Below, piece after piece: positions 46,805-60,678 of a stretch of 64,000 nucleotides of DNA (position 1 is its first letter; each line of letters starts with the position of its first letter). The stretch is from Desulforapulum autotrophicum. Its GTDB lineage: Bacteria; Desulfobacterota; Desulfobacteria; Desulfobacterales; Desulfolunaceae. Where the stretch lies: NCBI GenBank assembly GCA_020723285.1, contig DYJE01000008.1, positions 62,001 to 126,000 on the forward strand. Reading direction: 5' to 3'. The notes below the pieces were generated by a model that saw only the letters and a list, made by a program, of their open reading frames with translations, had not been told where the DNA came from and made no database searches. The translations under genes and the position numbers were made by a program.

Positions 46805-46818
46805 TTTTGGAGGCATCA

Positions 46819-47043
46819 ATGAAAACGTTCAATATTCATGAAACGAAAACGAATCTTTCCAGCATATTGGCAAATATTGAAATGACCGGGGAAACCTACC
46901 TGATATGCCGGAATGGAAAGCCGATCGCGGAAATTGTTCCGCATAAAAAAAAGAGCCGGCTTAAACCGGATCCTTTTTTAAGCCGGATAAAGATCACCTG
47001 TGATTTAACGGAACCCTTAACCGAAGAGGATTGGGATGTCTGA
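46819..47043 (+). CDS. Antitoxin, Phd/YefM family
   Basis: A 74-aa antitoxin starting MKTFNIHETKTNLSSILANIE, with the Phd/YefM N-terminal DNA-binding fold (T-K-T-N-L-S, then GETYLICRNGKPIAEIVP) and an acidic C-terminal toxin-binding tail (LTEPLTEEDWDV). The ATG at 46819 is preceded by GGAGG; an in-frame TTG upstream is rejected. It overlaps the toxin gene by 8 bases. Confidence 0.85.
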   Translation: MKTFNIHETKTNLSSILANIEMTGETYLICRNGKPIAEIVPHKKKSRLKPDPFLSRIKITCDLTEPLTEEDWDV

Positions 47044-47425
47044 TTCTCTGTTGCTTGACACATGCGCCCTGATCTGGCTTTCGGAAGGCGGGGGAGGCCT
47101 GTCCTCCCAGACCCTTGAACGCATTGAGAACGCGAGCGCCGTTTTTGTGTCTTCCATATCGGCCTTTGAAATATCATTGAAACACAAAAAAGGGGGAATC
47201 GAATTACCCTGCGATGCCCAAAGCTGGTTTTCAAAAATAGTGGCCCACCATGATATCTCCGTCGTACCGATAGATCATCACATTGCGGTCATGTCTGTTC
47301 AATTGCCGGATTTCCACAAGGATCCATGCGACAGATTCATCATTGCAACGGCAACGATACATCGGCTTCCGGTTGTAACAGGTGACAAAATGTTCGCCAA
47401 TTACGATATCTCCATCCTGTTTTAA
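47036..47425 (+). CDS. PIN-domain toxin, VapC-like
   Basis: A 129-aa PIN ribonuclease. Acidic residues for metal binding are D8 (LLLDTCALIWL), a glutamate in SAFEISLK and the aspartates in KDPCDRFIIATA, with a further D near the C-terminus (VTGDKMF). VapC toxins cleave tRNA or rRNA. The pair is a type II toxin-antitoxin module in which the antitoxin is of Phd type rather than VapB. Convergent with the radical SAM gene. Confidence 0.85.
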   Translation: MSDSLLLDTCALIWLSEGGGGLSSQTLERIENASAVFVSSISAFEISLKHKKGGIELPCDAQSWFSKIVAHHDISVVPIDHHIAVMSVQLPDFHKDPCDRFIIATATIHRLPVVTGDKMFANYDISILF

Positions 47426-47450: not shown

Positions 47451-48968
47451 TCAATCGAAAAAAAACGCCGCGTGGTTGGAGTTGAACACCGGCGGGTCCC
47501 GGTTGATGATCGCTGAAATATCCGGGTGCTTCTTGAATTCCCTGGCCAGGAAATCCCGGATATCGGAGCGGTTCCAGCCCATGGGATGGTTGAACTCCTT
47601 GTACAGTGACAAATCCCCGTCGTAAAACTGGCTGGTTTCCAGGTATTCCCATCCTCTGGCAAAATACGGCAGGTTGAACAGGGCGATGTTGAGGTACGAA
47701 ATCAGGTGTTTGTGATCGCAGACAAAATCCATGGTTTTCCGGGCCGCGGCCTCGGTTTCCCAGGGTGTGCCGAAAAGCAGGTACACATAGGTGGCGATGC
47801 CCGCACGCTTGAGCTCGGTAAGACTCCGTGACACAGTGCCAAGGTCGATGCCTTTGGTCAGATGATCCAGCACGTTCTGGTCCCCGGACTCGATGCCCAG
47901 CTTCAACATCCTACAGCCGGAGCGTTTCAGACTGCGGCAGAAGGCTTCATCCCCAAGCTGCCCCGTGATCCTGGCAAAGGTGTACCAGGGCGTATTGAAT
48001 CCGCTGCGTTCAAGACGGGTCATGAATTTCGGACTCAGGGCGTTGTCCACGAAATGGAAAAGGGCCGGTTTGTAGATGGCGTCAAGGGCTTTGACCTGGT
48101 CAACGGCCCGGTTCACATCAAGGGGTTCGTAAGGATTGTTCTCCGCTTGTTCGGGGCAGAACGTGCATTTTTTCCAGTAGCAGCCGTCCGCCGTGCAGAA
48201 AGGAATCACCAGCCCCGGACTCAAATACCGTCCGCCTGCGACCATGTCCCCGTAATCGGGCAGAACATCCGCTTCCTTGCGTTCAAACCCGAAAAGATCA
48301 AGGAGCGGGCCTTCGCCTTTTCCCGCGATCATCACATCCACGTAGCCGTCGAAGGGCGAGGCAAATCCCGGTTTGCGCATAAAGGAGGTCACGAGGCCCC
48401 CTCCCAGAACGATGCGGATGCCGGGGTTCAGATGCTTCAGGTATCCGATCATGGCAAAGGTGCACAGGGCCTGGTTCAGGTAGTTCAGGGAAAACCCCAC
48501 CGTGTCAAGGGCCCGGCCGTCTTTCGACAGCAGATCCTTGAAACGTTCGCTGAAATACGGGTAATAGACGTTTTCACGAAAATGCGCGGCAGCGTACAAC
48601 AGATCTTCGCTTTTCAGCGGAGACAGGGTGTCGCTTTTATAGTTGGCCAGAGTCACCAGAGACCCGGAGGGCCGGGACACCATAGCCAGAACCTTGTTGA
48701 TGTCCAGCACCGCGTTTTTGTAGCGGTCACGGTTGGCATACCCTTTTGATCCGGTGACCAGATCGAGGTTTTGCTCCCTTTTTTTAAGGGCCCGCTTTCC
48801 CCAGAGATCACCGGCCAGGGCCTTCTGATTGAAAAGGTAGTGAAACCCTTCAAGATTCATGTCAATGGAGTGGACCGGAACACCGTGGTGTTTCAGGGTG
48901 CCGTGGAGTCTCGCAAGGCCCGGAGGAGGCTCACAGGCCTTGGCGGACGGGGGAAAAATCAAAAGCAT
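47451..48968 (-). CDS. B12-binding-type radical SAM protein
   Basis: A 505-aa radical SAM enzyme. The N-terminal half (about 1-240) resembles a cobalamin-binding B12 Rossmann domain, with FPPSAKACEPPPGLARL and a glycine-rich RIVLGGGLVTSFM strand. The Fe-S motif is C263, C268, C271 (GCYWKKCTFC), a C-x4-C-x2-C variant of the usual C-x3-C-x2-C. TIM-barrel features follow (HFVDNALSPKFM, KLGIESGDQNVLDHLTKGI). The ATG at 48968 overlaps the ATPase stop (TGATG), so the two are translationally coupled. The substrate is unknown. Closest known groups are B12-dependent methyltransferases and RiPP enzymes. Confidence 0.8.
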   Translation of the reverse strand: MLLIFPPSAKACEPPPGLARLHGTLKHHGVPVHSIDMNLEGFHYLFNQKALAGDLWGKRALKKREQNLDLVTGSKGYANRDRYKNAVLDINKVLAMVSRPSGSLVTLANYKSDTLSPLKSEDLLYAAAHFRENVYYPYFSERFKDLLSKDGRALDTVGFSLNYLNQALCTFAMIGYLKHLNPGIRIVLGGGLVTSFMRKPGFASPFDGYVDVMIAGKGEGPLLDLFGFERKEADVLPDYGDMVAGGRYLSPGLVIPFCTADGCYWKKCTFCPEQAENNPYEPLDVNRAVDQVKALDAIYKPALFHFVDNALSPKFMTRLERSGFNTPWYTFARITGQLGDEAFCRSLKRSGCRMLKLGIESGDQNVLDHLTKGIDLGTVSRSLTELKRAGIATYVYLLFGTPWETEAAARKTMDFVCDHKHLISYLNIALFNLPYFARGWEYLETSQFYDGDLSLYKEFNHPMGWNRSDIRDFLAREFKKHPDISAIINRDPPVFNSNHAAFFFD

Positions 48969-51163
48969 CACAAACCTTCAGTCCGGACAGGAGTCTTCAT
49001 CATTTTTTTCAATTTCAGGGCGGAGCGGATCAGCAGCGCCTCTTCAGGCCGTCTGTCAAGAAGCCTGCCCACGGGTTTCCCGGCCATGAGATCGGCCCGT
49101 TCCCCGCTCTCTATATCCTTGAAACAGAATCCGTAAAGGCATTCCAGGGTTTTTGGGATGACAGCCGCAGGTCCGTGAACGACGCTCAGCACCCGCTGGA
49201 CGACCTGAACGTCCAGGGCGTCGGTCCAGGTGTCGAACACACGGGGATGGTCCAGGGCGTCCCAGGCCAGGTAAACGTAACGCAGAATATCGAGAATCAC
49301 CCGGTTGCCCAGCTCAAGCCCCGCTGTTTCAAGAATGCCGGAAAGAACGCCCAGACAGCCGGACAGGGCGTCCATCACATGGCCGTCTGCCGAGGTGTCG
49401 GCCCGGACGTCCCGCATGAGTTTCCGGATGTCTTCGGGCTTCAGATGGTTGGCCATAGGGGACTCCTGAAAATTCAGATCCCGCGCCATGGACCGTTTCC
49501 GTTCTTTGACCGTCAGGTGTTCATCGGGTCTCAGGCTTTCCAGCTCGATGACATTGGCCTTGGACAGCACCGCCAGATCCGGTTTTTCATACAGTGCACC
49601 GTCCGCCAGGGTTCCGATGATGAACAGATTGGACGGAATGGACAGGTCCTTGGGGATTTCCGAATACTGGGCAATATCGTCATCCATGTGAAGATGGACG
49701 TTCTCCCCGGTTTCCCAGGCGCAGAGGATATCGGCCAGATAATGCTCCGCCTGTGAATGATTCATGTTGTCAAGGATCAGGAAAAACGGGTTGTCCATGC
49801 CCCGTTTAAGGACGTGCCCCGCGTTGATGATCAGCTCAAGGGCCTGGGTTGTTTTATACTGTTCCCCCCGGCTGTCCAGACTCCCCAGAAGATGCGTCCG
49901 GTCCGTCCAGTTCCGGCCCACGGGGATGATTTCATACGTCCTTGACCGGGTGTGGACACCGTGTTCGTTGATCTGGATGTCCCGGGTGTACAGGTAGTCG
50001 GAAAACAGACGGATCTGGTCGTCCGTGAGCCGGTGGATGGCGTCGCCCCACATGCTGAAGGCGGGTATGCGTTGATCGTCCAGGTAGAAATCGCTGATTT
50101 TCAAAGGTCCCTTGAACAGCCAGTCGATTCGGACAAAATTTTTCGTGGATTCAAAATACGAATCAAAGGCGTCTCCGGAATCATCGAAAAAATGGGGCTG
50201 AAGCACCACGCCGATGCCACCCACGGTGTACCCGCCCTGATAGGCGATGATCACGTCGCCTTCCTTCAGGTCCTTCATCATTTTCTTCTGGTTCATGTCG
50301 ATGTTCTTTTTGCTGTCCAGGCCGTACAGCGACATGATGCCGTCTTTCAGCATGGTCTTTCGGACCAGGTTGATCTTTTTGTCCGATCCCTCGAAAGCGT
50401 TGACGATGTCCTTGTCGTTGTAGCTGATCTTGAACCAGCGGCGGCTCAGAAGGTCGCTCTCTTCGGTCAGGGATTCGTCGTTCCGCTTCTTTTCGTCCAT
50501 GTACTGGGCGAACAGATGGGCCAGGGCTGTTTTTCCGCTGCCGGAGGCCCCGGAAAGCATCACGAAGGGCTTGGTTTTGAGGGAAAGGATCAGACGCTGG
50601 ATGATGTCCTGATGGAAAAAAAAGCCCCGGTGATCAAGGAAAGTGGAGAATCGTGTGTCCGGCCCCATGCCCAGGACAGGTTTGAGGCTTTCGGGAAGAC
50701 GGTCGGGAAAACGCTCCACAATCATCCGGAATCCGTCGGTGCTGAAATTGAAAAGGTAGCCCTGGTTGACACCTTTCAGCGTGTTGAACGGCTTGTTCGT
50801 TTCAATGGACGCGCTGATCATGTCCATCATGGGCTTGATTTCCTCAAGTCCCACAGGCCGTGAAAGATCGTAAAAATCCAGGTCGATGCGATACCCTTCC
50901 TTTTTGATGTTCACATGGCTCCGCGCCTTGTCCTTGGCGATGGAAAAGGCCATGATCTCCTTCTGGGCGAAACAGATCACCATGTCCCCGGCCTCGACCT
51001 CTTTCATGGCGTCCCAATGTGGAAAGGATTTCCCGCCGGCCACAGGCGACGGAGCCCAGATGTAGCCGTCCATCCTGGCCCTGGCGTAGGTGTGCCCCAG
51101 ATTCACCCACCAGACATTGAAATAGTAGCTGACTTCAAAACCCCAGTCGTCCCTTCCGTCCAC
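48968..51163 (-). CDS. EVE-domain McrB-like AAA+ ATPase with degenerate catalytic motifs
   Basis: A 731-aa protein. Residues about 1-170 match the EVE-like N-terminus of McrB-type proteins (NVWWVNLGHTYARARMDGYI, GDMVICFAQKEIMAF, VNQGYLFNF), a modified-base or RNA reader fold. Walker A GASGSGKT with K211 is intact. A second EVE-like segment (about 285-345, GDVIIAYQGGYTVGGIG) is inserted before the AAA core. The McrB Walker B site is LILDNMN with D465 but N466 in place of the essential glutamate; sensor-1 GTxN is GTLA (A520); the arginine-finger position of SPKVLDRA is LAVLSKA with K535. ATP binding is likely but hydrolysis doubtful. No McrC nuclease is adjacent. It is translationally coupled to the radical SAM gene downstream; a zinc-knuckle gene lies 156 bases upstream. 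Confidence 0.75.
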   Translation of the reverse strand: MDGRDDWGFEVSYYFNVWWVNLGHTYARARMDGYIWAPSPVAGGKSFPHWDAMKEVEAGDMVICFAQKEIMAFSIAKDKARSHVNIKKEGYRIDLDFYDLSRPVGLEEIKPMMDMISASIETNKPFNTLKGVNQGYLFNFSTDGFRMIVERFPDRLPESLKPVLGMGPDTRFSTFLDHRGFFFHQDIIQRLILSLKTKPFVMLSGASGSGKTALAHLFAQYMDEKKRNDESLTEESDLLSRRWFKISYNDKDIVNAFEGSDKKINLVRKTMLKDGIMSLYGLDSKKNIDMNQKKMMKDLKEGDVIIAYQGGYTVGGIGVVLQPHFFDDSGDAFDSYFESTKNFVRIDWLFKGPLKISDFYLDDQRIPAFSMWGDAIHRLTDDQIRLFSDYLYTRDIQINEHGVHTRSRTYEIIPVGRNWTDRTHLLGSLDSRGEQYKTTQALELIINAGHVLKRGMDNPFFLILDNMNHSQAEHYLADILCAWETGENVHLHMDDDIAQYSEIPKDLSIPSNLFIIGTLADGALYEKPDLAVLSKANVIELESLRPDEHLTVKERKRSMARDLNFQESPMANHLKPEDIRKLMRDVRADTSADGHVMDALSGCLGVLSGILETAGLELGNRVILDILRYVYLAWDALDHPRVFDTWTDALDVQVVQRVLSVVHGPAAVIPKTLECLYGFCFKDIESGERADLMAGKPVGRLLDRRPEEALLIRSALKLKKMMKTPVRTEGL

Positions 51164-51277
51164 GATGCGTCTCCTTTTCCCGGTTCTTTATCGCCTTTCT
51201 TTTTTTCCATAAACAACCACAACAGGCAAAAAAACACAAAGGGAAAACGTCAGGGTCTTTCCGTGGAAATATTCAAT

Positions 51278-51312
51278 CGCCTCCGCCGTTTTTCGAAAAA
51301 CCGACGGAGGCG
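51278..51312 (-). terminator. Hairpin after the zinc-knuckle gene
   Basis: Outer stem CGCCTCCG / CGGAGGCG (8 bp) and an inner stem GTTTTT-CG-AAAAAC. It has few T residues after it on either strand, so it may attenuate rather than fully terminate transcription into the ATPase gene. Confidence 0.45.
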
Positions 51313-51319
51313 GTGTCCG

Positions 51320-51550
51320 TCACAGAATGGCCACAGGATTGCAAAGATCGTCGTTAACCTCCGAACCCTTTCCGCATCCACCGCAGTAGTATTTCAGATC
51401 CACCTTCCGGGGGTTGACAAGGCCGTCGGGGCTGCACGCATTCTCCCCGCAGCGGCTGCACTGGTAAACCGTATCCACGGGCCTGGGTTCACAGAGGCTT
51501 TCGATATCGATGCCCACTTTTCCACATTGTCCGCATCCGTATTGTTTCAT
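51320..51550 (-). CDS. Triple CxxC zinc-knuckle small protein
   Basis: A 76-aa protein built of three short copies of the pattern Y-x-C-x2-C-G ... C-x-P: cysteines C6, C9, C20; C31, C34, C39; C56, C59, C70. Each could bind zinc or iron together with neighbouring residues. The ribosome site AAGGAGG is strong. I do not know the family. It lies 156 bases upstream of the EVE ATPase on the same strand, with a hairpin between, so co-regulation is possible but not shown. Confidence 0.7.
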   Translation of the reverse strand: MKQYGCGQCGKVGIDIESLCEPRPVDTVYQCSRCGENACSPDGLVNPRKVDLKYYCGGCGKGSEVNDDLCNPVAIL

Positions 51551-52152: not shown

Positions 52153-55100
52153 TCACGAGGAGGCGATGGCGGTCATGCGGAGACTGAAGTTTTTCATCTG
52201 GTAAATGAGGAGGCCGTCCACGGTGAGGTAGCCGTCGGCGGTGATGACGGGGTTTTCGCCGTCCGCAACCGCCGTGATCAGGGCTGTGACCTCCACTTTT
52301 TTGTTGCGTGGAATGACCTGGCCCCGGTAGAGCCACTGGTGTTCCGTGCCGGTGACGAAATCCAGGCGGTGAGTGTCCGCCAAGGGTTTGAAGCGTTCCA
52401 GAGCCGCGAACTTCATCAGCTGAATAAAGGATTCGATGCCCAGGGAACCGGGGCAGACCGGGTCCTGATAAAAATGGGCCTTGAAGAACCATTCATCCAC
52501 GTCCACGGTCTTGTATCCCCGGACATAGCCGAGACCGTGGGGTCCGCCGTCCGGGATGTAGCATTCCACGCCATCCACCATCAGAAGAGCCTTGGACGGC
52601 ATGGACGCGGGTTTGAACGGATCGGCGTTCGTGTCGTCGGGGGTCAGCGGGGCTTCCTTCGGGAAATCCATGGCCACGGCCCGTCCCATTTCCGCTTCCG
52701 TGGGCCGGTAAACGATGGTTTCCGGGTTACGGATGCCCACCTGCTGCTCCATGGTTTCGTTGGTGAAGAACCCGAAATTCGTCACGCCTTTGTACAGCAT
52801 GTCGCCGTCATGGAGAATTTCAAGGTCGAAATCCTCGATGATCATGCCGGCGGCTTCGGACACTTTGGTCATGCGGGTGCGCATGGTGAGGGTTCCGAAG
52901 CCCCGTTTCACTTCCTTGTAAAGGATGGCCTTGCCGCCCAGGTTTCGGAACTTCAGCTGTTTCTCGTTTCTCAGGGCCGATCCGGCGTAGGCCGCCAGCC
53001 AGCCGCAGGGCTGGAGGGCGATTTCCAGAAGCACGCAGAACGGCATGTTGTCCGAACGATTGGCCCTGAAATACCACTCGTCAGCGGGAACACGGTATTC
53101 GGCTTCGATCCAGCCGCCGGATTTCAATTCCCAGGCCTTGTGATCGGCCTTTGTGACACAGTCCATAAAAAAGTAGGGCGGTCCGGGAAGACGGGCGATG
53201 ATGCGGTCCGAATCGAACACCTTGTACTTATCACCGAACGCTTCGGACGGTTTGCCCACGGCGTAGGCCAGGAGTTTTTTCCGGTCAAACAGCACGGATT
53301 TTTCACCGGCCTCTTTTCCTGCGCTGTCTTTGCCGAAGGAACCCAGGAGGCGTTCGTCCATCACCGCTTCGTAGCCGGAAATGGTGGCCACCACGGCGTT
53401 CTTTTTGTCAAGGAAGTAGAAATCCGACGTCATTTTATGTTCGGTCAACGATTTTACCTCCATCACCACGGTCATGCCGTCATGGGGGAATTCCCGGCTG
53501 TACTGGCGGTACGAAGCGCTATAGCTGGGCAAAGACACCACTCCCTTCTGCTCGTAACACCAGAGAATGGCCATCTGATAGGCAGAATCGATAACCAGAG
53601 GATCGGCGACCCAGTTGGTTCTTAAAGGATCGGCAATCCATGACGAGGGCGGAGGCGCGGATGCCACGTCCGCCACCATGCCCCGTTCGGAGCAACCCCT
53701 GACCGTCTTGATGCCATGGAGATCCGGCCCGTGGAACAAAACCTCGTTATAAGCTTCTTGGATTTTCCGGCCGTAGGAACTTGCCAGGATTTCAACCGGA
53801 ATAGCATACTCCGGTGCTTCGGGCAGCCGTTCCACAAGCACGGCGTTGGCCCTGGAATGAAGGACTTCCCTTTCCTGGTTGCCGTTACGGATCTCCATGT
53901 CCACCTCAAAGAGCCCACCGTCTTTTTTCACGGGTTTGCCGCTCATCAGCCGGATGGTTTTGGTTTCACCTTCTATTTTAATCCCTTGAAGCACACGCAT
54001 GTTATCCAGGCCATGAAGCAGAAAGCCGGGGTTTTTGTGCAGCGCACCATGACCAAACCATTCGGTCATCAGGGCGAAGGGCACCACGGGCTTATCCTTG
54101 ATCACATGGGATTTCAGGACCGGATACAGCTCGGCGTCCACCTCCTTTTTGAAAGACACGCCAAGATGGGCGGCCATGGGCTGTGGTTCGGGCTCGGCCG
54201 ATGTCTCTAGTGCCTGATCCATCGCCGCCAGTTCGTCCATGCTGGTGGGGAACGTTCCGCCGATCACCACTTCCACCGGGTCGGAAAGGGGTGCCGCCAT
54301 TTCCGTCACCATGCATTCCGCCCCCTCTTTCAGGGGAATCAGTTCCACATGCTTTTTCGCGAATTCCTTTTTCAGGCTTTCGGTGACCATGCCGCCGTCC
54401 CAGGGCCCCCAGTTGATGGACACCACACGGCAGGCTTTGTTATGCTCCGCGTAGGCCCTTCCGGTTTTGTTCAGCACCTCGTTGGCCATGGCGTAGGCCA
54501 CCTGTCCGGTGTTGCCGATCCGGGCGCTCACCGAGGAAAACAGCACCAGGTATTTGAGGTCCTCTTCGGGTATGGTTTTCAGAAGATTTTCAAGGCCGTG
54601 GACTTTGGTGTTGTAAACCCGGTCGAACTGCTCCCGGGTCTGGTCCACGATGAACCGGTCTTCCAGCACACCCGCCCCGTGAATCAGGGCTTTCACCGGA
54701 CCGAAGGAGGCTTTCACCTCTTCCATCACCCGGCTCAGACTGGCCGGTTCGTTCACGTCCGCCGGAAAATAGTACACATTGGACCCGGCCTGTTTCAGGC
54801 GGTTCAGGGTCCCTTTGATTTCCCGGTTGCCCATGATGGTTTTGAAAGCCTTGTCCACCTGGGCCGGCGTGACTTTCTGGCCCTTGAACTGATGTTCGAG
54901 GATGGCTTTCTTGATGGCCGGAATATCGGTCAGCGAAGCGAGCCAGGACGGTTCGGAAGGCGGTTCTTCGGTTCTACCCAGAAGGACGATGGTGGGTCTG
55001 GCTTTCCGTGCAAGGGCGATGGCCGCTTCGGCGGTGACCCCTTTGGCACCGCCTGAAACCACCACCACATCTTTGGGGCCAAGGGCCAGAGAGCCCTTCC

Positions 55101-58100
55101 CGGCTTCCGCTTTTTCAAGATGCAGGATAAACCTGTCCAAATCGGTGAGTCCCACTTCCACGGCCCCTTTGTGAAGGAGTTCATCCACGATGCGGCTGGC
55201 CATCCGTCCGTTCGCTTTGGCGTTCAGGTCCACGTCAAGGGCTTTGCAGCTGACGTTTTCCCATTCCAGGGCCGCTGTTTTGGCAAGACCGGACAGACCA
55301 CCCAAGACCGGTGCGGCCAGTTTGCCGCCGCCAAAACCGAAGGTTCCGTCAAGGCGGGTCACCGTGGCGAAAAATGCTCCGCCTTTGCCAGCGGATTCCA
55401 TGAGGGCCGCGCCTGTTTTATGGGCCAGCTCAAAGGCTTTTTTCAGGATTTCTTCGTGATGCCTGTCCCAGATGTCCGAATCCTTTTTCTTGAAACCGGC
55501 AAGGTTTGCGAGTCCTCCTTTTTTCTTCAGATCCGGAACGATGACAAGACCTGCGGCGTCCGGGGTTCTGTCATCCGGCTGGATGAGGGACGCGGAAAGC
55601 TTCCGGGCTTTGAGTTCATTCACGATGGCCGATGAAAGGCCGGTTTTGTCGTCGGTGACGTAGATCTTTTTCCCCGGAGGAAGGGTGATCCGGGTCTGGC
55701 CGTCAAGCGGCCGTTTTTCAAGGACCACCACCTGACGGTTGACCGTGACCGGTTCTGAGGGCACTTCCGCCGCATCTTCCTGTTTCACGGCCGTAACCGA
55801 AACTGTCGGAGCGGCTGCGGCAACGGTCGTTCCGGCACCCGACGATCCCACGTAATCCAGGATCTGCTGAAGGGTTTTAAGGCTGCCCATGACTTCAGGG
55901 TCCACCGACGGCAGATCGGGCATGAGGCTCTCGAATTCGCTCATGATCTCCACACGTTTGATGGAGTCGATCCCGAGGTCCGCCTCGATGTCCATGTCAA
56001 GGCCAACCATGTCTTCGGGGTAGCCGGTGAGGCGGCTCACCACGTCTTTCATGATGGCGGTGATCCGGCCCATGTCCACGGCGGGTGTCTGTGTCTGAAC
56101 TGCGGGAGCCATGGGCTCTGCCGATGTTTGAGAGGCATTTCCGGCCACATGAGCCACGATGTCTCCCAGGGTTTTGAGCACCGCCATGTCGTCCGGGGAC
56201 AGCGGGGGCAGATCGGGCACACGCTCTTCAAAAGCGCTCATGATCTCCACCCGTTTGATGGAATCGATGCCCAGGTCCGCCTCGATGTCCATGTCAAGAC
56301 CGATCATGTCCACGGGGTAGCCCGTGAGTTCGGAAACCACGTCCAGCATGGTCGCCGTGAGTTTTTTCAGATCAACGGAAGGAGCCGAAGATTTGACGGC
56401 CGTCACAGGCTGTGCCACTGCAGGGGTAAGAGCCGCAAGGGATTCGGTGACATAGGCGAGGATTTCGCCCAGAGTCTTGAGGGTGGCCATGGCTTCAGGC
56501 GAAATGCTGGGAAGATCGGCGCTTCGTTCTTCAAAAGCGCTCATGATCTCCACGCGCTTGATGGAATCGATGCCCAGATCCGCCTCGATGTCCATGTCAA
56601 GGCCGATCATGTCCACGGGATAGCCCGTGAGTTCGGAAACCACGTCCAGCATGATTTTCGTCAGATGCCCGGTGTCCACGGCGGCTGCCGGGGCCGACGC
56701 TGCGGATGACGGAACAGATTCGGCCGAATCCGCTTCTCCGGCCACATATTCCAGAATTTCGCCCAGGGTCTTGATGGTGGCCATGGCTTCGGGAGAGATG
56801 GGGGGCAGATCAGGCACACGCTCTTCAAAGGCGCTCATGATCTCCACACGTTTGATGGAATCGATGCCCAGATCCGCCTCGATATCCATATCAAGACCGA
56901 TCATGTCCACGGGATAGCCCGTGAGTTCGGACACCACGTCCAGCATGGCCTGTGACAGCTGCTTCATGCTTACGGCCTGTTTTGACGATACCGGAGACGG
57001 TACGGCGGCAGACTGTGTTTCAGCGCCGCTGTCCGGTGACGTTTCACACACGTAAGCCACGATCTCGCCCAGGGTCTTGATGCCGCCCATGACTTCGGGT
57101 GACATGGGGGGCAGATCCGGCACACGCTCTTCAAAAGCGCTCATGATCTCCACACGTTTGATGGAATCGATGCCCAGATCCGCCTCGATGTCCATGTCAA
57201 GGCCGATCATGTCCACGGGATAGCCCGTGAGTTCGGAGACCACGTCCAGCATGTGTTTTTCCACGTTTTTCCTGAAATCACCCGAGGGTTTGGGCGTCTC
57301 GGCAACCGCCCTGACAGGCGCAGCCGCTTTCACCGTCTCACGGAGTTCAGGAATCCGGGGTTTCGGGGCTTCGGCCCTGGGAGCCGGTGCGGGCACGGCT
57401 TTCACAGGCGGTACGGCCGGACGGGGAGTCTCGACAGAGACAACAGCGGCTGCAGGTTCGGCAGGCGCTCCGCTGAAAACCCTGGGTCGCGTTTCGCCGG
57501 CCATCATCTGACGGGCTTTTTCCATGATATCCTGAAGCGTCCGGCCCGCATCGGCCTGGGCCGCAAGGAAACGGTTGTGGGCCTCGGCGGTCTGGCTCTG
57601 GATGGCCTGCATGGATTTCAGGCCCTCGCTGATCACGGCGAGGGCGTCATGAACCGGAACAGCCGGGCTGGCCGTAACGGCAGGCGCAGCATGCAACGGG
57701 CCGGATACGGGTTTGACATCCTTGTTTTCGGAAGGTTTCACTGAATTTGGCATGGTCTTGTTTTCCACGGGTTTGGCCACCGTTTCCGGTTTGGCCGTCA
57801 AGGCAGCCGGCGCAGGGACAGATGTTGGAAGCGTGAGGGTGGTTTTGGGTCTGGGTTTCACCGGGTTCCTGTAATTGGCACCGGTGATGGGAATGCTCAT
57901 GCCCTGTTTTTCCGGCTTGGACACCGGGTCCTCCCAGACTGAAAACTGAACGGGACACCCCAGGGCCGCCAGACGGCACAGGGCTTTGGCCAGATCCAGC
58001 ATGCCGGATTTCTTGCCGGATGAGGGATCGAGGGCCACCACATGAACCCCCTTGTCCGCAGTCATGGCTTTCACCAGCCCGGTCAAAACCGGCTTGGGCC

Positions 58101-60678
58101 CCACTTCCACAAAGGTCCGTATGCCGCTTTTGCAGAGATTTTCGATATCCGCCACAAAATTCACAGGGTTCAGCAGCTGGTTCCCCAGAATCTTCCGGAC
58201 GGCCTTGATGTCGTTGGCCGGGTACGGTTCGCCGGTGGTGTTGGAATACACGGGAACAGCGGTGGGTTTGATGGAATACCCCTCCACCTCCTTGCCGAAG
58301 GGTTTGGCCGCCTTTTCCACCAGACTGCTGTGGAAGGCCGCGGCCACGGGCAGTTTCGTGGTCCTGTATCCTTTTTCACGGCAGAGGGCGTCGGCTTTGT
58401 CGATGGCTTCGAAACTGCCTGAAAGAACGCCCTGATCGTAGCAGTTGCGGTTGGCCAGCACCACGGGAATGCCGCTTTTTTTAATCAGCTGGTCCAGTTC
58501 GTCCAGGGGCGCTTTCACCGCCAGCATGGTTCCCGCGTTCTCACCGCAGGCCGCCATGTGTTTTCCACGGGCCACGGCAAGCTTGAGAAAATCGTCGCAA
58601 CTGATCCATCCGGCGGAGCACAGCGCCGTAAGCTCACCGAAACTGTGGCCGCACACGGATTTGGGTTTCAGGCCGAACCGTTTCAGAACCTTGTCCATGG
58701 CAAGACTGACCACGCCGATGGCAGGCTGGGCCTTGTCCGTTTTTCGTAAGGCATCTTCCGCGACTTTGGGATCAACAATGTGGCCGGGCAGCGGATACAT
58801 GATGTCCGATAGCCGTTCCGCGTCCTCGGGAAACAGGCTGTCGGCTTTCTCAAGAATATTCCGCGTTTCGGCAAACCCGTTGATCATGTCTTTGCCCATG
58901 TGGGCGTACTGACTGCCCTGGCCGGGAAAGATGAACGCCAGATTGTCGGACACGGCCTGACCGCAGCCGAAATACATAAACGGTTTCTCGATATCTTCCC
59001 CGTTGTTTGCTTTGAGCAGCGCAAGGGCCTGATCCACGATCTGGATAGGTTTTTCATCTGTTGTGACGATGAGAAGAAGCCGCGAACCTTCCTCGGCGTT
59101 GAACGTCTGGCGGGTCAGACTGGCCTGGTAGCGGAAAAAACCGTCGCATTCGAAAAGCGGCAGGTCCATGGTTACAGCCGCTTTGAAATCCTCCAGCTTC
59201 TTCACCACGTCCTCTTTGGAATGGCCGGAAAAACTCAGGATTTCCACGGAACCGTCCCAGGATGATTCGGGTTTTTCCCTGGCGTATTCTTCGAGAATCA
59301 CATGAAAATTGCTGCCGCCGAAACCCGAAGCAGTGACACCGCAGCGCCGGGGATGGTCTTTGGGCGGCATCCAGGGCCGGGACTGGGTGAGGAAATAGAA
59401 CGGGCTTTCCTTGACGTTGATCTTGGGGTCCAGGGTGTCGAGGTTGATGATGGGCGGCATGACCTTGTGATGCAGTGAAAGGATGCCTTTGATGAGACCG
59501 GCGATGCCCGCCGAGGCCTTGGCATGGCCGATGTTGGATTTCACGGTGCCCACGCCGCAGCGTCTCTTGCGGTCTTTTCCTGAACCGAACGCCAGGGTGA
59601 GGCCGTCGAATTCCACCACGTCGCCCCGGGTCCCCGTGCCGTGGGCTTCCACCATGTCCACGGTGGCCGGATCGATCCCGGCCTCGTCGTAAGCCCGTTG
59701 GATGGCCCGGGCCTGGCCTTTGGCGCTGGGGGCATAGATGCTTAAAGATTTTCCGTCGCTCGACGATCCCACGGATTTGATCACCGCGTAGATTTTATCC
59801 TTGTCTTTCTCAGCCTGGGCCAGGGGTTTGAGGATCAGGATGCCGATGCCCTCGGCCAGAACCGTTCCGTCAGCTTTGTCGGAAAAGGCCTTGACGCTGC
59901 CGGTATGGGAAAGGACGCCGGTCTGGGCGAAACACATGTGCATGAAGATGTCGTTCAGGGTGTCCACGCCGCCGGTGACCACCATGTCACTGCGGCCGGT
60001 CTGAAGTTCCATGAAAGCGAGGTTCAAGGCCGTGAACGAGCTGGCGCAGGCTGCGTCAAGGGTGGTGTTGGTGCCGCCGAAATCGAAGCGGTTGGCGATA
60101 CGTCCGGCGATGACATTTCCCAGCAGACCGGGAAAGGAACTTTCCTGCCAGGGGGCGTAGGATTCCGATATCCGTTCCACCACTTCCTGGGTTTTGTCAG
60201 CAGGGATTCCTGAATCTTCCAGGGCTTTCCTCCATTTGGGATGGCCCAGCCTCGACCCCAGGGAAATGACCAGCTCCTGGGTCACGGTGGCCCCGATCAT
60301 CACGCTGACCCGGCTTCTGTCATAATCCCGTCCTTTTCCGTAACCGGCGTCGTCCAGGGCCATGCGCGTGGCCACAAGCCCGAGAAGCTGGGACGTGTCC
60401 GTGGCTTCCAGGATGTTGGGAGGAATGCCGAATTCCGCAGGGTTGAACGGAACAGCCGAAAGATACCCGCCATGGGTGCAGTACGTGTGGTCCTGGGTTT
60501 TCGGATTATCCGAATAATAATCCCCGGCGCTCCAGTGGGTCTCGGGCACCTCTTTCACGGCGTGTTCGCCCTGATACAACAGTCTCCAGTATTCTTTCAG
60601 TCCCGGCGCTTTCGGAAAAAGACAGCCTATGCCGATCACGGCCACAGGCGACGGCTTCTTAACGTGATTCATACTCAA
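52153..60678 (-). CDS. Polyketide / PUFA-synthase-like megaenzyme (KS-AT-ACPx5-KR-DHs)
   Basis: A 2841-aa iterative synthase resembling PfaA with the dehydratases of PfaC fused on. KS about 1-450, active cysteine C211 in DAACASSF with VEAHGTGT and KSNIGHAKAS. AT about 560-890 with S679 in CGHSFGE. Proline/alanine-rich linker about 950-1120. Five ACPs with phosphopantetheine serines S1172, S1274, S1372, S1473, S1572 in LGIDSIKRVE. KR about 1870-2110 (VVVSGGAKGVTAEAA, then a tyrosine in GQVAYAMANE). Hotdog PS-DH about 2150-2430 (LKSHVIKDKPVVPFALM). FabA-like DH1 about 2450-2640 (RANRSDNMPFCVLLEIALQP) where the catalytic histidine is not evident, and DH2 about 2660-2841 with AHFYQDPVCPGSLG. No CLF, enoyl reductase or phosphopantetheinyl transferase nearby. 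Product unknown: fatty acid or polyene. Confidence 0.85.
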   Translation of the reverse strand: MSMNHVKKPSPVAVIGIGCLFPKAPGLKEYWRLLYQGEHAVKEVPETHWSAGDYYSDNPKTQDHTYCTHGGYLSAVPFNPAEFGIPPNILEATDTSQLLGLVATRMALDDAGYGKGRDYDRSRVSVMIGATVTQELVISLGSRLGHPKWRKALEDSGIPADKTQEVVERISESYAPWQESSFPGLLGNVIAGRIANRFDFGGTNTTLDAACASSFTALNLAFMELQTGRSDMVVTGGVDTLNDIFMHMCFAQTGVLSHTGSVKAFSDKADGTVLAEGIGILILKPLAQAEKDKDKIYAVIKSVGSSSDGKSLSIYAPSAKGQARAIQRAYDEAGIDPATVDMVEAHGTGTRGDVVEFDGLTLAFGSGKDRKRRCGVGTVKSNIGHAKASAGIAGLIKGILSLHHKVMPPIINLDTLDPKINVKESPFYFLTQSRPWMPPKDHPRRCGVTASGFGGSNFHVILEEYAREKPESSWDGSVEILSFSGHSKEDVVKKLEDFKAAVTMDLPLFECDGFFRYQASLTRQTFNAEEGSRLLLIVTTDEKPIQIVDQALALLKANNGEDIEKPFMYFGCGQAVSDNLAFIFPGQGSQYAHMGKDMINGFAETRNILEKADSLFPEDAERLSDIMYPLPGHIVDPKVAEDALRKTDKAQPAIGVVSLAMDKVLKRFGLKPKSVCGHSFGELTALCSAGWISCDDFLKLAVARGKHMAACGENAGTMLAVKAPLDELDQLIKKSGIPVVLANRNCYDQGVLSGSFEAIDKADALCREKGYRTTKLPVAAAFHSSLVEKAAKPFGKEVEGYSIKPTAVPVYSNTTGEPYPANDIKAVRKILGNQLLNPVNFVADIENLCKSGIRTFVEVGPKPVLTGLVKAMTADKGVHVVALDPSSGKKSGMLDLAKALCRLAALGCPVQFSVWEDPVSKPEKQGMSIPITGANYRNPVKPRPKTTLTLPTSVPAPAALTAKPETVAKPVENKTMPNSVKPSENKDVKPVSGPLHAAPAVTASPAVPVHDALAVISEGLKSMQAIQSQTAEAHNRFLAAQADAGRTLQDIMEKARQMMAGETRPRVFSGAPAEPAAAVVSVETPRPAVPPVKAVPAPAPRAEAPKPRIPELRETVKAAAPVRAVAETPKPSGDFRKNVEKHMLDVVSELTGYPVDMIGLDMDIEADLGIDSIKRVEIMSAFEERVPDLPPMSPEVMGGIKTLGEIVAYVCETSPDSGAETQSAAVPSPVSSKQAVSMKQLSQAMLDVVSELTGYPVDMIGLDMDIEADLGIDSIKRVEIMSAFEERVPDLPPISPEAMATIKTLGEILEYVAGEADSAESVPSSAASAPAAAVDTGHLTKIMLDVVSELTGYPVDMIGLDMDIEADLGIDSIKRVEIMSAFEERSADLPSISPEAMATLKTLGEILAYVTESLAALTPAVAQPVTAVKSSAPSVDLKKLTATMLDVVSELTGYPVDMIGLDMDIEADLGIDSIKRVEIMSAFEERVPDLPPLSPDDMAVLKTLGDIVAHVAGNASQTSAEPMAPAVQTQTPAVDMGRITAIMKDVVSRLTGYPEDMVGLDMDIEADLGIDSIKRVEIMSEFESLMPDLPSVDPEVMGSLKTLQQILDYVGSSGAGTTVAAAAPTVSVTAVKQEDAAEVPSEPVTVNRQVVVLEKRPLDGQTRITLPPGKKIYVTDDKTGLSSAIVNELKARKLSASLIQPDDRTPDAAGLVIVPDLKKKGGLANLAGFKKKDSDIWDRHHEEILKKAFELAHKTGAALMESAGKGGAFFATVTRLDGTFGFGGGKLAAPVLGGLSGLAKTAALEWENVSCKALDVDLNAKANGRMASRIVDELLHKGAVEVGLTDLDRFILHLEKAEAGKGSLALGPKDVVVVSGGAKGVTAEAAIALARKARPTIVLLGRTEEPPSEPSWLASLTDIPAIKKAILEHQFKGQKVTPAQVDKAFKTIMGNREIKGTLNRLKQAGSNVYYFPADVNEPASLSRVMEEVKASFGPVKALIHGAGVLEDRFIVDQTREQFDRVYNTKVHGLENLLKTIPEEDLKYLVLFSSVSARIGNTGQVAYAMANEVLNKTGRAYAEHNKACRVVSINWGPWDGGMVTESLKKEFAKKHVELIPLKEGAECMVTEMAAPLSDPVEVVIGGTFPTSMDELAAMDQALETSAEPEPQPMAAHLGVSFKKEVDAELYPVLKSHVIKDKPVVPFALMTEWFGHGALHKNPGFLLHGLDNMRVLQGIKIEGETKTIRLMSGKPVKKDGGLFEVDMEIRNGNQEREVLHSRANAVLVERLPEAPEYAIPVEILASSYGRKIQEAYNEVLFHGPDLHGIKTVRGCSERGMVADVASAPPPSSWIADPLRTNWVADPLVIDSAYQMAILWCYEQKGVVSLPSYSASYRQYSREFPHDGMTVVMEVKSLTEHKMTSDFYFLDKKNAVVATISGYEAVMDERLLGSFGKDSAGKEAGEKSVLFDRKKLLAYAVGKPSEAFGDKYKVFDSDRIIARLPGPPYFFMDCVTKADHKAWELKSGGWIEAEYRVPADEWYFRANRSDNMPFCVLLEIALQPCGWLAAYAGSALRNEKQLKFRNLGGKAILYKEVKRGFGTLTMRTRMTKVSEAAGMIIEDFDLEILHDGDMLYKGVTNFGFFTNETMEQQVGIRNPETIVYRPTEAEMGRAVAMDFPKEAPLTPDDTNADPFKPASMPSKALLMVDGVECYIPDGGPHGLGYVRGYKTVDVDEWFFKAHFYQDPVCPGSLGIESFIQLMKFAALERFKPLADTHRLDFVTGTEHQWLYRGQVIPRNKKVEVTALITAVADGENPVITADGYLTVDGLLIYQMKNFSLRMTAIASS
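55900..57260. repeat. Five tandem ACP-coding repeats inside the synthase gene
   Basis: Units of about 300 bases. The core of about 150 bases (residues from VVSELTGYP to about SAFEERV) is nearly identical between units 1-4 at the DNA level, while the alanine/proline linkers differ. Unit 5 is more diverged. Homogenisation by recombination is likely. Confidence 0.8.

What the first reader, a model, noticed from the sequence alone, without database searches (positions are those of the whole stretch)
47451..51550. EVE/McrB-like ATPase with dead catalytic motifs, coupled to a radical SAM enzyme, no McrC
The ATPase keeps Walker A (K211) but has lost the Walker B glutamate (N466), sensor-1 asparagine (A520) and the arginine finger (K535). 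It has two EVE-like segments, one inserted in the AAA region. Its stop overlaps the start of a B12-type radical SAM gene (TGATG), and a triple zinc-knuckle gene lies upstream. Known McrB proteins act with the McrC nuclease, which is absent here. The set may be a modified-base or RNA-sensing system in which the ATPase is a nucleotide-binding switch and the radical SAM enzyme the effector or the modifier.
Basis: partly seen in the sequence, partly recalled or inferred. Interest (0 to 1): 0.75.

Follow-up and report, generated by a model that had tools for sequence, protein, structure and literature searches.

The report
Hydrolysis-dead McrB relative beside radical-SAM gene
A bacterial protein descended from a DNA-restriction motor has kept its nucleotide-binding motif but lost the residues for breaking nucleotides down, has no partner nuclease, and sits in an operon with a much older radical enzyme, which suggests that a defence protein has been put to a new use.

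Summary
The 731-aa protein is McrB-type AAA+, with K211 intact and N466, A520 and K535 where 21 of 21 aligned relatives keep E, N and R. The loss is selective: all 8 near-invariant catalytic/trans residues are gone, against 4 of 31 others.
Its N-terminal domain is a VcaM4I-type EVE reader; the inserted second EVE is probable, not proven.
Relatives sit beside a DUF2357 McrC gene; the closest in architecture (G699) is an intact EVE-McrB with McrC next door. The window's genome matches none of three McrC families.
Coupling to radical SAM is only partly supported: that gene is widespread (74 of 291 genomes near full length), the ATPase is in 2. In the second genome both genes are cut at contig ends in the geometry adjacency predicts; the junction is missing.
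The zinc gene is unrelated.
Best reading: an exapted, hydrolysis-dead EVE-McrB acting as a nucleotide-binding nucleic-acid reader; whether it serves the radical SAM enzyme is open.

The parts
48968..51163 (-). EVE-McrB-type AAA+ protein without catalytic residues, 731 aa
50699..51124 (-). N-terminal EVE domain (aa 14-155), VcaM4I type; keeps T, W, P, Q, Y of the pocket, has lost the E15 and W82 equivalents
50528..50551 (-). Walker A GASGSGKT (aa 205-212), intact
49934..50488 (-). insert between the Walker A helix and the next strand (about aa 226-410), probable second EVE/PUA domain
49760..49771 (-). Walker B region DNMN (aa 465-468), E to N at 466
49589..49612 (-). NxD/sensor-1 block TLADGALY (aa 518-525), N to A at 520, D to G at 522
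49556..49567 (-). arginine-finger position LSKA (aa 533-536), D to S at 534 and R to K at 535
47451..48971 (-). radical SAM protein, 506 aa, widespread single gene of the order, overlapping the ATPase stop here
48156..48182 (-). radical SAM cysteine motif CYWKKCTFC (CX4CX2C)
48966..48970 (-). TGATG stop/start overlap of the two genes

Best explanation
The ATPase is an exapted McrB. It descends from an EVE-McrB/McrC type IV restriction system (shown by homology and by the intact relative G699). In the ancestor of two genera it gained a probable second EVE domain inside the AAA+ module and lost two contacts of its modified-cytosine pocket (both seen in G000 and G001). The window's copy has also lost McrC and the residues for GTP/ATP hydrolysis (shown in sequence; of the second genome only the first third of the protein is held). 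It has kept the P-loop, the Mg-binding aspartate, most structural positions and an open frame. I infer that it binds a nucleotide without turning it over and acts as a nucleic-acid reader or scaffold rather than a motor. Its gene overlaps that of a radical SAM enzyme that predates it in the order. The most economical inferred role is to recruit or gate that enzyme, or to tie its expression to a nucleic-acid signal; this last step is a guess resting on one certain and one likely case of linkage.
For: Residue losses against 21 of 21 aligned relatives. Of 39 near-invariant columns in 18 relatives, 27 are kept, including G205, G208, G210, K211, D465 and R621; 12 are lost, 8 of which form the whole catalytic/trans set. 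Published McrB work: alanine at the Walker B Glu abolishes hydrolysis, Asn of NxxD orients the water, its Asp is in the network touched by McrC, and alanine at either of two paired Arg impairs hydrolysis and hexamers (PMC7680126, passages). A DUF2357 McrC gene beside 15 of 16 relatives whose flanks were read (in one of the 15 a transposase lies between), the 16th by eye only; no match in G000. G699: EVE-McrB, intact, no insert, McrC 14 bp away. G001 shares the lost W82 loop, the E15 change and the start of the insert. N-part pN 0.29 against saturated pS 0.81 between G000 and G001; divergence of the two genes is alike, dN 0.37 and 0.34. Contig-end geometry in G001, with the missing parts found nowhere else there.
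Against: The G001 protein is seen only to residue 244, so the dead state itself is known from one genome. R535K keeps a positive charge. The radical SAM link is certain in one genome only, and 5 of 6 near relatives have the enzyme alone. G001 has an McrC of another type elsewhere (PF10117, C156), so a partner in trans cannot be excluded there. The inserted EVE and the AAA+ fold were not confirmed by structure. No biochemical data exist.
Confidence: 0.55

Rival explanations
1. Linkage without function: the ATPase is a real, possibly defensive, reader or scaffold, and the radical SAM gene is only its operon neighbour because the ATPase gene landed in front of it.
For: The radical SAM gene has mixed neighbours elsewhere (18 neighbourhoods), is placed with its own family in the tree (93/87 support), and is kept without the ATPase in G002-G006. 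The stop/start overlap needs nothing more than a compact insertion.
Against: G001 contig ends fit the same order in a different gene neighbourhood, and the two proteins have matching divergence. By my own rough arithmetic (330 contigs, 6.8 Mb) the contig-end pattern is some tens of times likelier if the genes are adjacent than if they are not.
Confidence: 0.3
2. A decaying remnant of a restriction system: McrC was lost first, and the McrB gene is now losing its catalytic residues without replacement function.
For: No McrC match in the genome, catalytic residues lost, and only 2 of 8 family genomes hold the gene.
Against: 731 codons open, no stop; protein changes held back in the part that can be compared (pN 0.29, pS 0.81); losses fall on catalytic positions, not at random; G+C at third positions 0.73, as in the radical SAM and fatty-acid synthase genes (0.70, 0.71); shared derived features in two genera.
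Confidence: 0.15
3. A working type IV system with an unrecognised partner: the protein still translocates or cuts DNA with a nuclease encoded elsewhere, using other residues for hydrolysis.
For: Some AAA+ proteins tolerate changed Walker B residues (recalled); G001 has an McrC on another contig (C156).
Against: The Walker B Glu, the sensor-1 Asn and the McrC-network Asp are all gone, and G000 has no McrC family match.
Confidence: 0.06

Closest known systems
EVE-McrB/McrC type IV restriction systems (nearest found: G699 contig C67)
   Same: VcaM4I-type EVE followed by McrB AAA+ module in the same order
   Different: G699 is longer at its N-terminus, has intact motifs, the W82 loop, no insert and a DUF2357-PDDEXK_7 McrC next door
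VcaM4I EVE-HNH endonuclease (PDB 6yex)
   Same: EVE fold and the pocket residues T11, W22, P24, Q128, Y130
   Different: no HNH domain; E15 and W82 equivalents lost, which 23 of 23 comparison EVE domains keep
McrB census and CoCoNuTs (PMC11090510)
   Same: McrB GTPase modules that frequently hold inserts, likely specificity domains, are described there (section 6)
   Different: no DUF2357 McrC partner was found here; I saw no hydrolysis-dead McrB in the passages read
Cobalamin radical SAM gene next to EVE in Alteromonadales (PMC7641849, passages)
   Same: a radical SAM gene of the B12 kind beside an EVE gene
   Different: there an EVE protein, not said to be McrB; relation of the two radical SAM families not tested. 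[quoted passage not shown] 7 legend)

Membership tests
McrBC type IV restriction system | McrB-type AAA+ module | tested here: met
   27 of 39 near-invariant columns kept; best phylum relatives 28-35% identical over residues ~405-720
McrBC type IV restriction system | Walker A | tested here: met
   GASGSGKT, K211
McrBC type IV restriction system | Walker B glutamate, Nx(x)D signature, arginine finger | tested here: not met
   N466, A520/G522, K535; 21 of 21 aligned relatives keep E, N, R
McrBC type IV restriction system | McrC nuclease next door | tested here: not met
   radical SAM gene in its place; no PF10117, PF09823 or PF04411 match in G000 (no control rang)
McrBC type IV restriction system | GTP-dependent cleavage of modified DNA | not testable with these tools
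   needs biochemistry
EVE modified-base reader | EVE/PUA fold | tested here: met
   6yex Z 18.2, 147 residues, rmsd 2.7; sequence E 9.5e-7
EVE modified-base reader | VcaM4I pocket for flipped 5mC/5hmC | tested here: not met
   5 of 8 contact positions kept; E15 and W82, invariant in 23 of 23 comparison domains, are A and I; Q10 (18 of 23) is H
EVE modified-base reader (inserted copy) | EVE fold of about residues 226-408 | tested here: inconclusive
   Pfam E 0.064, hhalign 76%, structure model failed
Radical SAM superfamily | radical SAM domain with three cysteines | tested here: met
   PF04055 42.5 bits over 29.5; C264, C269, C272, spacing CX4CX2C in the window and in 18 of 18 full-length orthologs aligned
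B12-dependent radical SAM | B12-binding domain | tested here: inconclusive
   PF02310 22.1 bits, below its cut-off of 32.1; NCBIfam B12 families far below cut-off
CoCoNuT | coiled-coil McrC-type nuclease partner | tested here: not met
   no DUF2357 match in the genome (no control rang; PDDEXK_7 also without a match)

The most novel reading that the evidence does not exclude
A restriction motor has been turned into the targeting subunit of a modification enzyme: the hydrolysis-dead EVE-McrB binds nucleotide and a marked nucleic acid and brings the radical SAM enzyme to it, so that a cut-if-modified system became a modify-or-repair-if-marked system.
Probability: 0.12. Interest if true: 0.8.

Novelty: new variant of a known kind. 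Interest (0 to 1): 0.48.

Why it matters
McrB is described as a GTP-driven motor stimulated by McrC (PMC7680126, abstract in the listing and passages). A copy that has shed hydrolysis residues, McrC and part of its base pocket but kept the P-loop offers a natural separation-of-function case, and a test of whether restriction readers are recruited for other work. In the searches made, one paper held 'EVE domain', 'McrB' and 'radical SAM' together, and its passage speaks of an EVE gene beside radical SAM, not of McrB. Of the searches I saw listings only, apart from papers opened elsewhere; papers such as PMC10853773 and PMC7159879, which hold some of the terms, were not opened, so the pairing may be mentioned there.

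Tried and rejected
Zinc-knuckle gene as part of the set: rejected. Radical SAM as a dedicated partner across genomes: rejected as a general rule. Import of the radical SAM gene together with the ATPase: not supported, it sits in its family's clade. Phage or plasmid origin of the whole gene: no match in phages (full protein; EVE part), only partial matches in plasmids (183 records, none covering 80%), none in viral contigs by the full protein. One genome-contig scan gave a single P-loop match. PADLOC gave PDC-M26A (E 1.1e-18, two stretches, the best in the AAA+ module); no paper found under 'PDC-M26'. Structure: AlphaFold of the insert alone failed; the full-length model is good only in the N-terminal EVE (mean pLDDT 55), so the AAA+ part and the insert were not tested by fold. 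PDB sequence search with the insert gave chance matches only. PMC6344862 and PMC12923530 were looked into (passages) and gave nothing used here. Taxonomic names: genomes bear handles only, so no organism is named.
Full report
What is there. On the minus strand, 48968-51163 encodes a 731-aa protein whose stop overlaps the start of a 506-aa radical SAM protein (47451-48971), and 51320-51550 encodes a 76-aa protein with three CxxC repeats.

The AAA+ module is McrB. Phylum-wide search (395 genomes) gave matches in 18, the best at 28-35% over residues ~405-720, mostly with a second piece over the P-loop. Order-wide (291 genomes) gave 10 with a match and class-wide (389) gave 15; the samples overlap. 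Fifteen ORFs were aligned; one (L061) is an ABC protein and was dropped. The other 14, four plasmid relatives, L083 and the viral-contig L096, and G699 make 21, all with the Walker B glutamate, the asparagine of the Nx(x)D signature and the arginine, where the window has N, A and K. Seven weak matches were checked by motif alone: two have all three residues, three have the glutamate with the rest unread, two were unreadable. In one search, 18 of the 21 were aligned with the window protein less its insert; L175 and L096 (which have inserts) and G699 (found later) were left out. Thirty-nine columns are near-invariant (17 or 18 of 18); the window keeps 27 and loses 12, while each relative keeps 36-39 of the 39-46 columns judged without it. 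The lost ones include all eight of E466, N520, D522, E523, T525, K531, D534 and R535; of the other 31, four are lost (T209S, L469H, S481C, K657R). P-loop residues, D465, N468 and R621 are kept.

What these residues do. In Thermococcus McrB, alanine at the Walker B glutamate abolishes hydrolysis; the Nx(x)D asparagine and that glutamate place the water; the aspartate is in the hydrogen-bond network through which McrC acts; alanine at either of two paired arginines impairs hydrolysis and hexamers (PMC7680126, passages read). The NxD and NxxD branches and frequent insertions in the GTPase are described in PMC11090510 (passages; section 6 in full). So no hydrolysis is expected; nucleotide binding is likely but not shown, and the R to K change may weaken ring formation.

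Readers. The N-terminal domain is an EVE of the VcaM4I type: phmmer to PDB 6yex E 9.5e-7, model pLDDT by ten-residue block 62 to 96 over residues 11-160, VIA-align Z 18.2, rmsd 2.7 over 147 residues. Of eight VcaM4I contact positions (from PMC7897488, passages), five are kept (T11, W22, P24, Q128, Y130). E15 and W82, present in 23 of 23 comparison domains, are A and I in the window and A and R in G001, with a ten-residue loop missing in both. The 23 are not a random sample: 20 come from viral contigs found with an EVE alignment that included the window, whose search patterns contain W22 and P24, and were picked for coverage; E15, W82 and Y130 are not in those patterns. The pocket has therefore changed in a way that two genera share. 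The insert (about residues 226-408) starts in G001 too (its last visible residues). It is absent from G699, where the window's residues 229 and 410 align two positions apart. Inserts at the same site occur in Thermococcus barophilus (L175) and in L096. Evidence that this one is EVE: Pfam E 0.064, 0.18 alone, phmmer to EVE-HNH ORFs 0.00017 to 0.013 for whole sequences but weak per domain, hhalign 76%. Against: nothing in PDB by sequence, failed model. Probable, not proven. [quoted passage not shown] 7 legend, section 9 read in full), so two would be unusual.

McrC. Of ten phylum relatives whose flanks were fetched, nine have a DUF2357 gene by Pfam, in one of them past a transposase (L079) and in one cut by the contig end (L074); in the tenth (L080) the next frame looks McrC-like by eye. 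Four of four plasmid relatives opened have an annotated DUF2357 gene adjacent, L096 has one, and G699 has one 14 bp away. Flanks of L083 and of the weaker matches were not read. G000 has no match to PF10117, PF09823 (no control rang in that call) or PF04411 (three known holders rang). The genome is 97% complete, so a small chance of a missed gene remains. G001 has a PF10117 McrC on contig C156, not next to the ATPase piece.

Radical SAM. Orthologs near full length are in 74 of 291 genomes of the order, with fragments in 8 more (my count of the list, by E-value and range). Their neighbours differ (18 neighbourhoods read besides the window and G001); none carries the ATPase. The tree of 20 rows over residues 268-506 puts the window with its family (93/87). 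The cysteine motif is CX4CX2C in 18 of 18 full-length orthologs aligned and in the window. Named relatives are far below family cut-offs; the best solved relative is an apramycin-pathway enzyme (6fd2, E 3.4e-9). Its substrate is unknown.

The link. Relatives: 3 of 58 genomes gave an ATPase match: the window's own, G001, and G041 with a lone EVE. G001 has ATPase residues 11-244 at the start of contig C203 (minus strand) and radical SAM residues 268-506 at the end of C256 (minus strand), each running off the contig in the sense that adjacency in the window's order needs, with about 2.3 kb missing. The rest of the ATPase matched nowhere else in G001 (6 of 6 candidates scored); the first 267 residues of radical SAM gave only two weak paralog matches there (31-35%, 10 of 10 candidates scored). 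Gene neighbours differ from the window. By rough arithmetic of my own this pattern is some tens of times likelier if the genes are adjacent. Divergence is alike: dN 0.37 (ATPase N-part, 235 codons) and 0.34 (radical SAM C-part, 239 codons); synonymous sites are saturated or nearly so. G002-G006 have the radical SAM gene and no ATPase; G007 has a fragment and no ATPase.

Zinc gene. Ortholog in G001 on C21, and a match in each of the 8 family genomes with or without the ATPase, two in G000; a terminator-like hairpin follows it at 51322-51302 (such hits are common by chance, 11 against 7.7 expected). Not part of the set.

Judgement. An EVE-McrB with neither nuclease nor hydrolysis residues that stayed under selection at least in its first third is best explained as exaptation. 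Pure decay is less likely. The role with radical SAM is open. Literature: only the searches were made; subscription papers are mostly not held.

Noticed in passing
window 47451-48971 and L027-L044: A radical SAM family with the cysteine spacing CX4CX2C (unusual as far as I recall), present near full length in 74 of 291 genomes of the order in changing neighbourhoods, with no close named family.
   Followed up: partly
window 46807-47425: Phd/YefM antitoxin and PIN toxin pair pointing at the end of the radical SAM gene.
   Followed up: no
window 52153-60678: A 2841-aa PfaA-like polyunsaturated fatty-acid/polyketide synthase with five tandem carrier domains, read by eye from the translation.
   Followed up: no
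window 51320-51550: Small protein of three CxxC repeats, with a match in each of the 8 family genomes, two in this genome; function unknown.
   Followed up: partly
L163 2524-4134: Viral-contig ORF that looks like two EVE domains in a row followed by an HNH-like part; the first EVE resembles the inserted domain of the window protein weakly.
   Followed up: no
L096 3-1637; L175 1722-4598: McrB relatives with inserts of about 160 aa at the same place between the Walker A helix and the next strand, one on a viral contig with McrC next to it.
   Followed up: partly
L079 1329-2558: A transposase gene sits between an McrB relative and its McrC.
   Followed up: no
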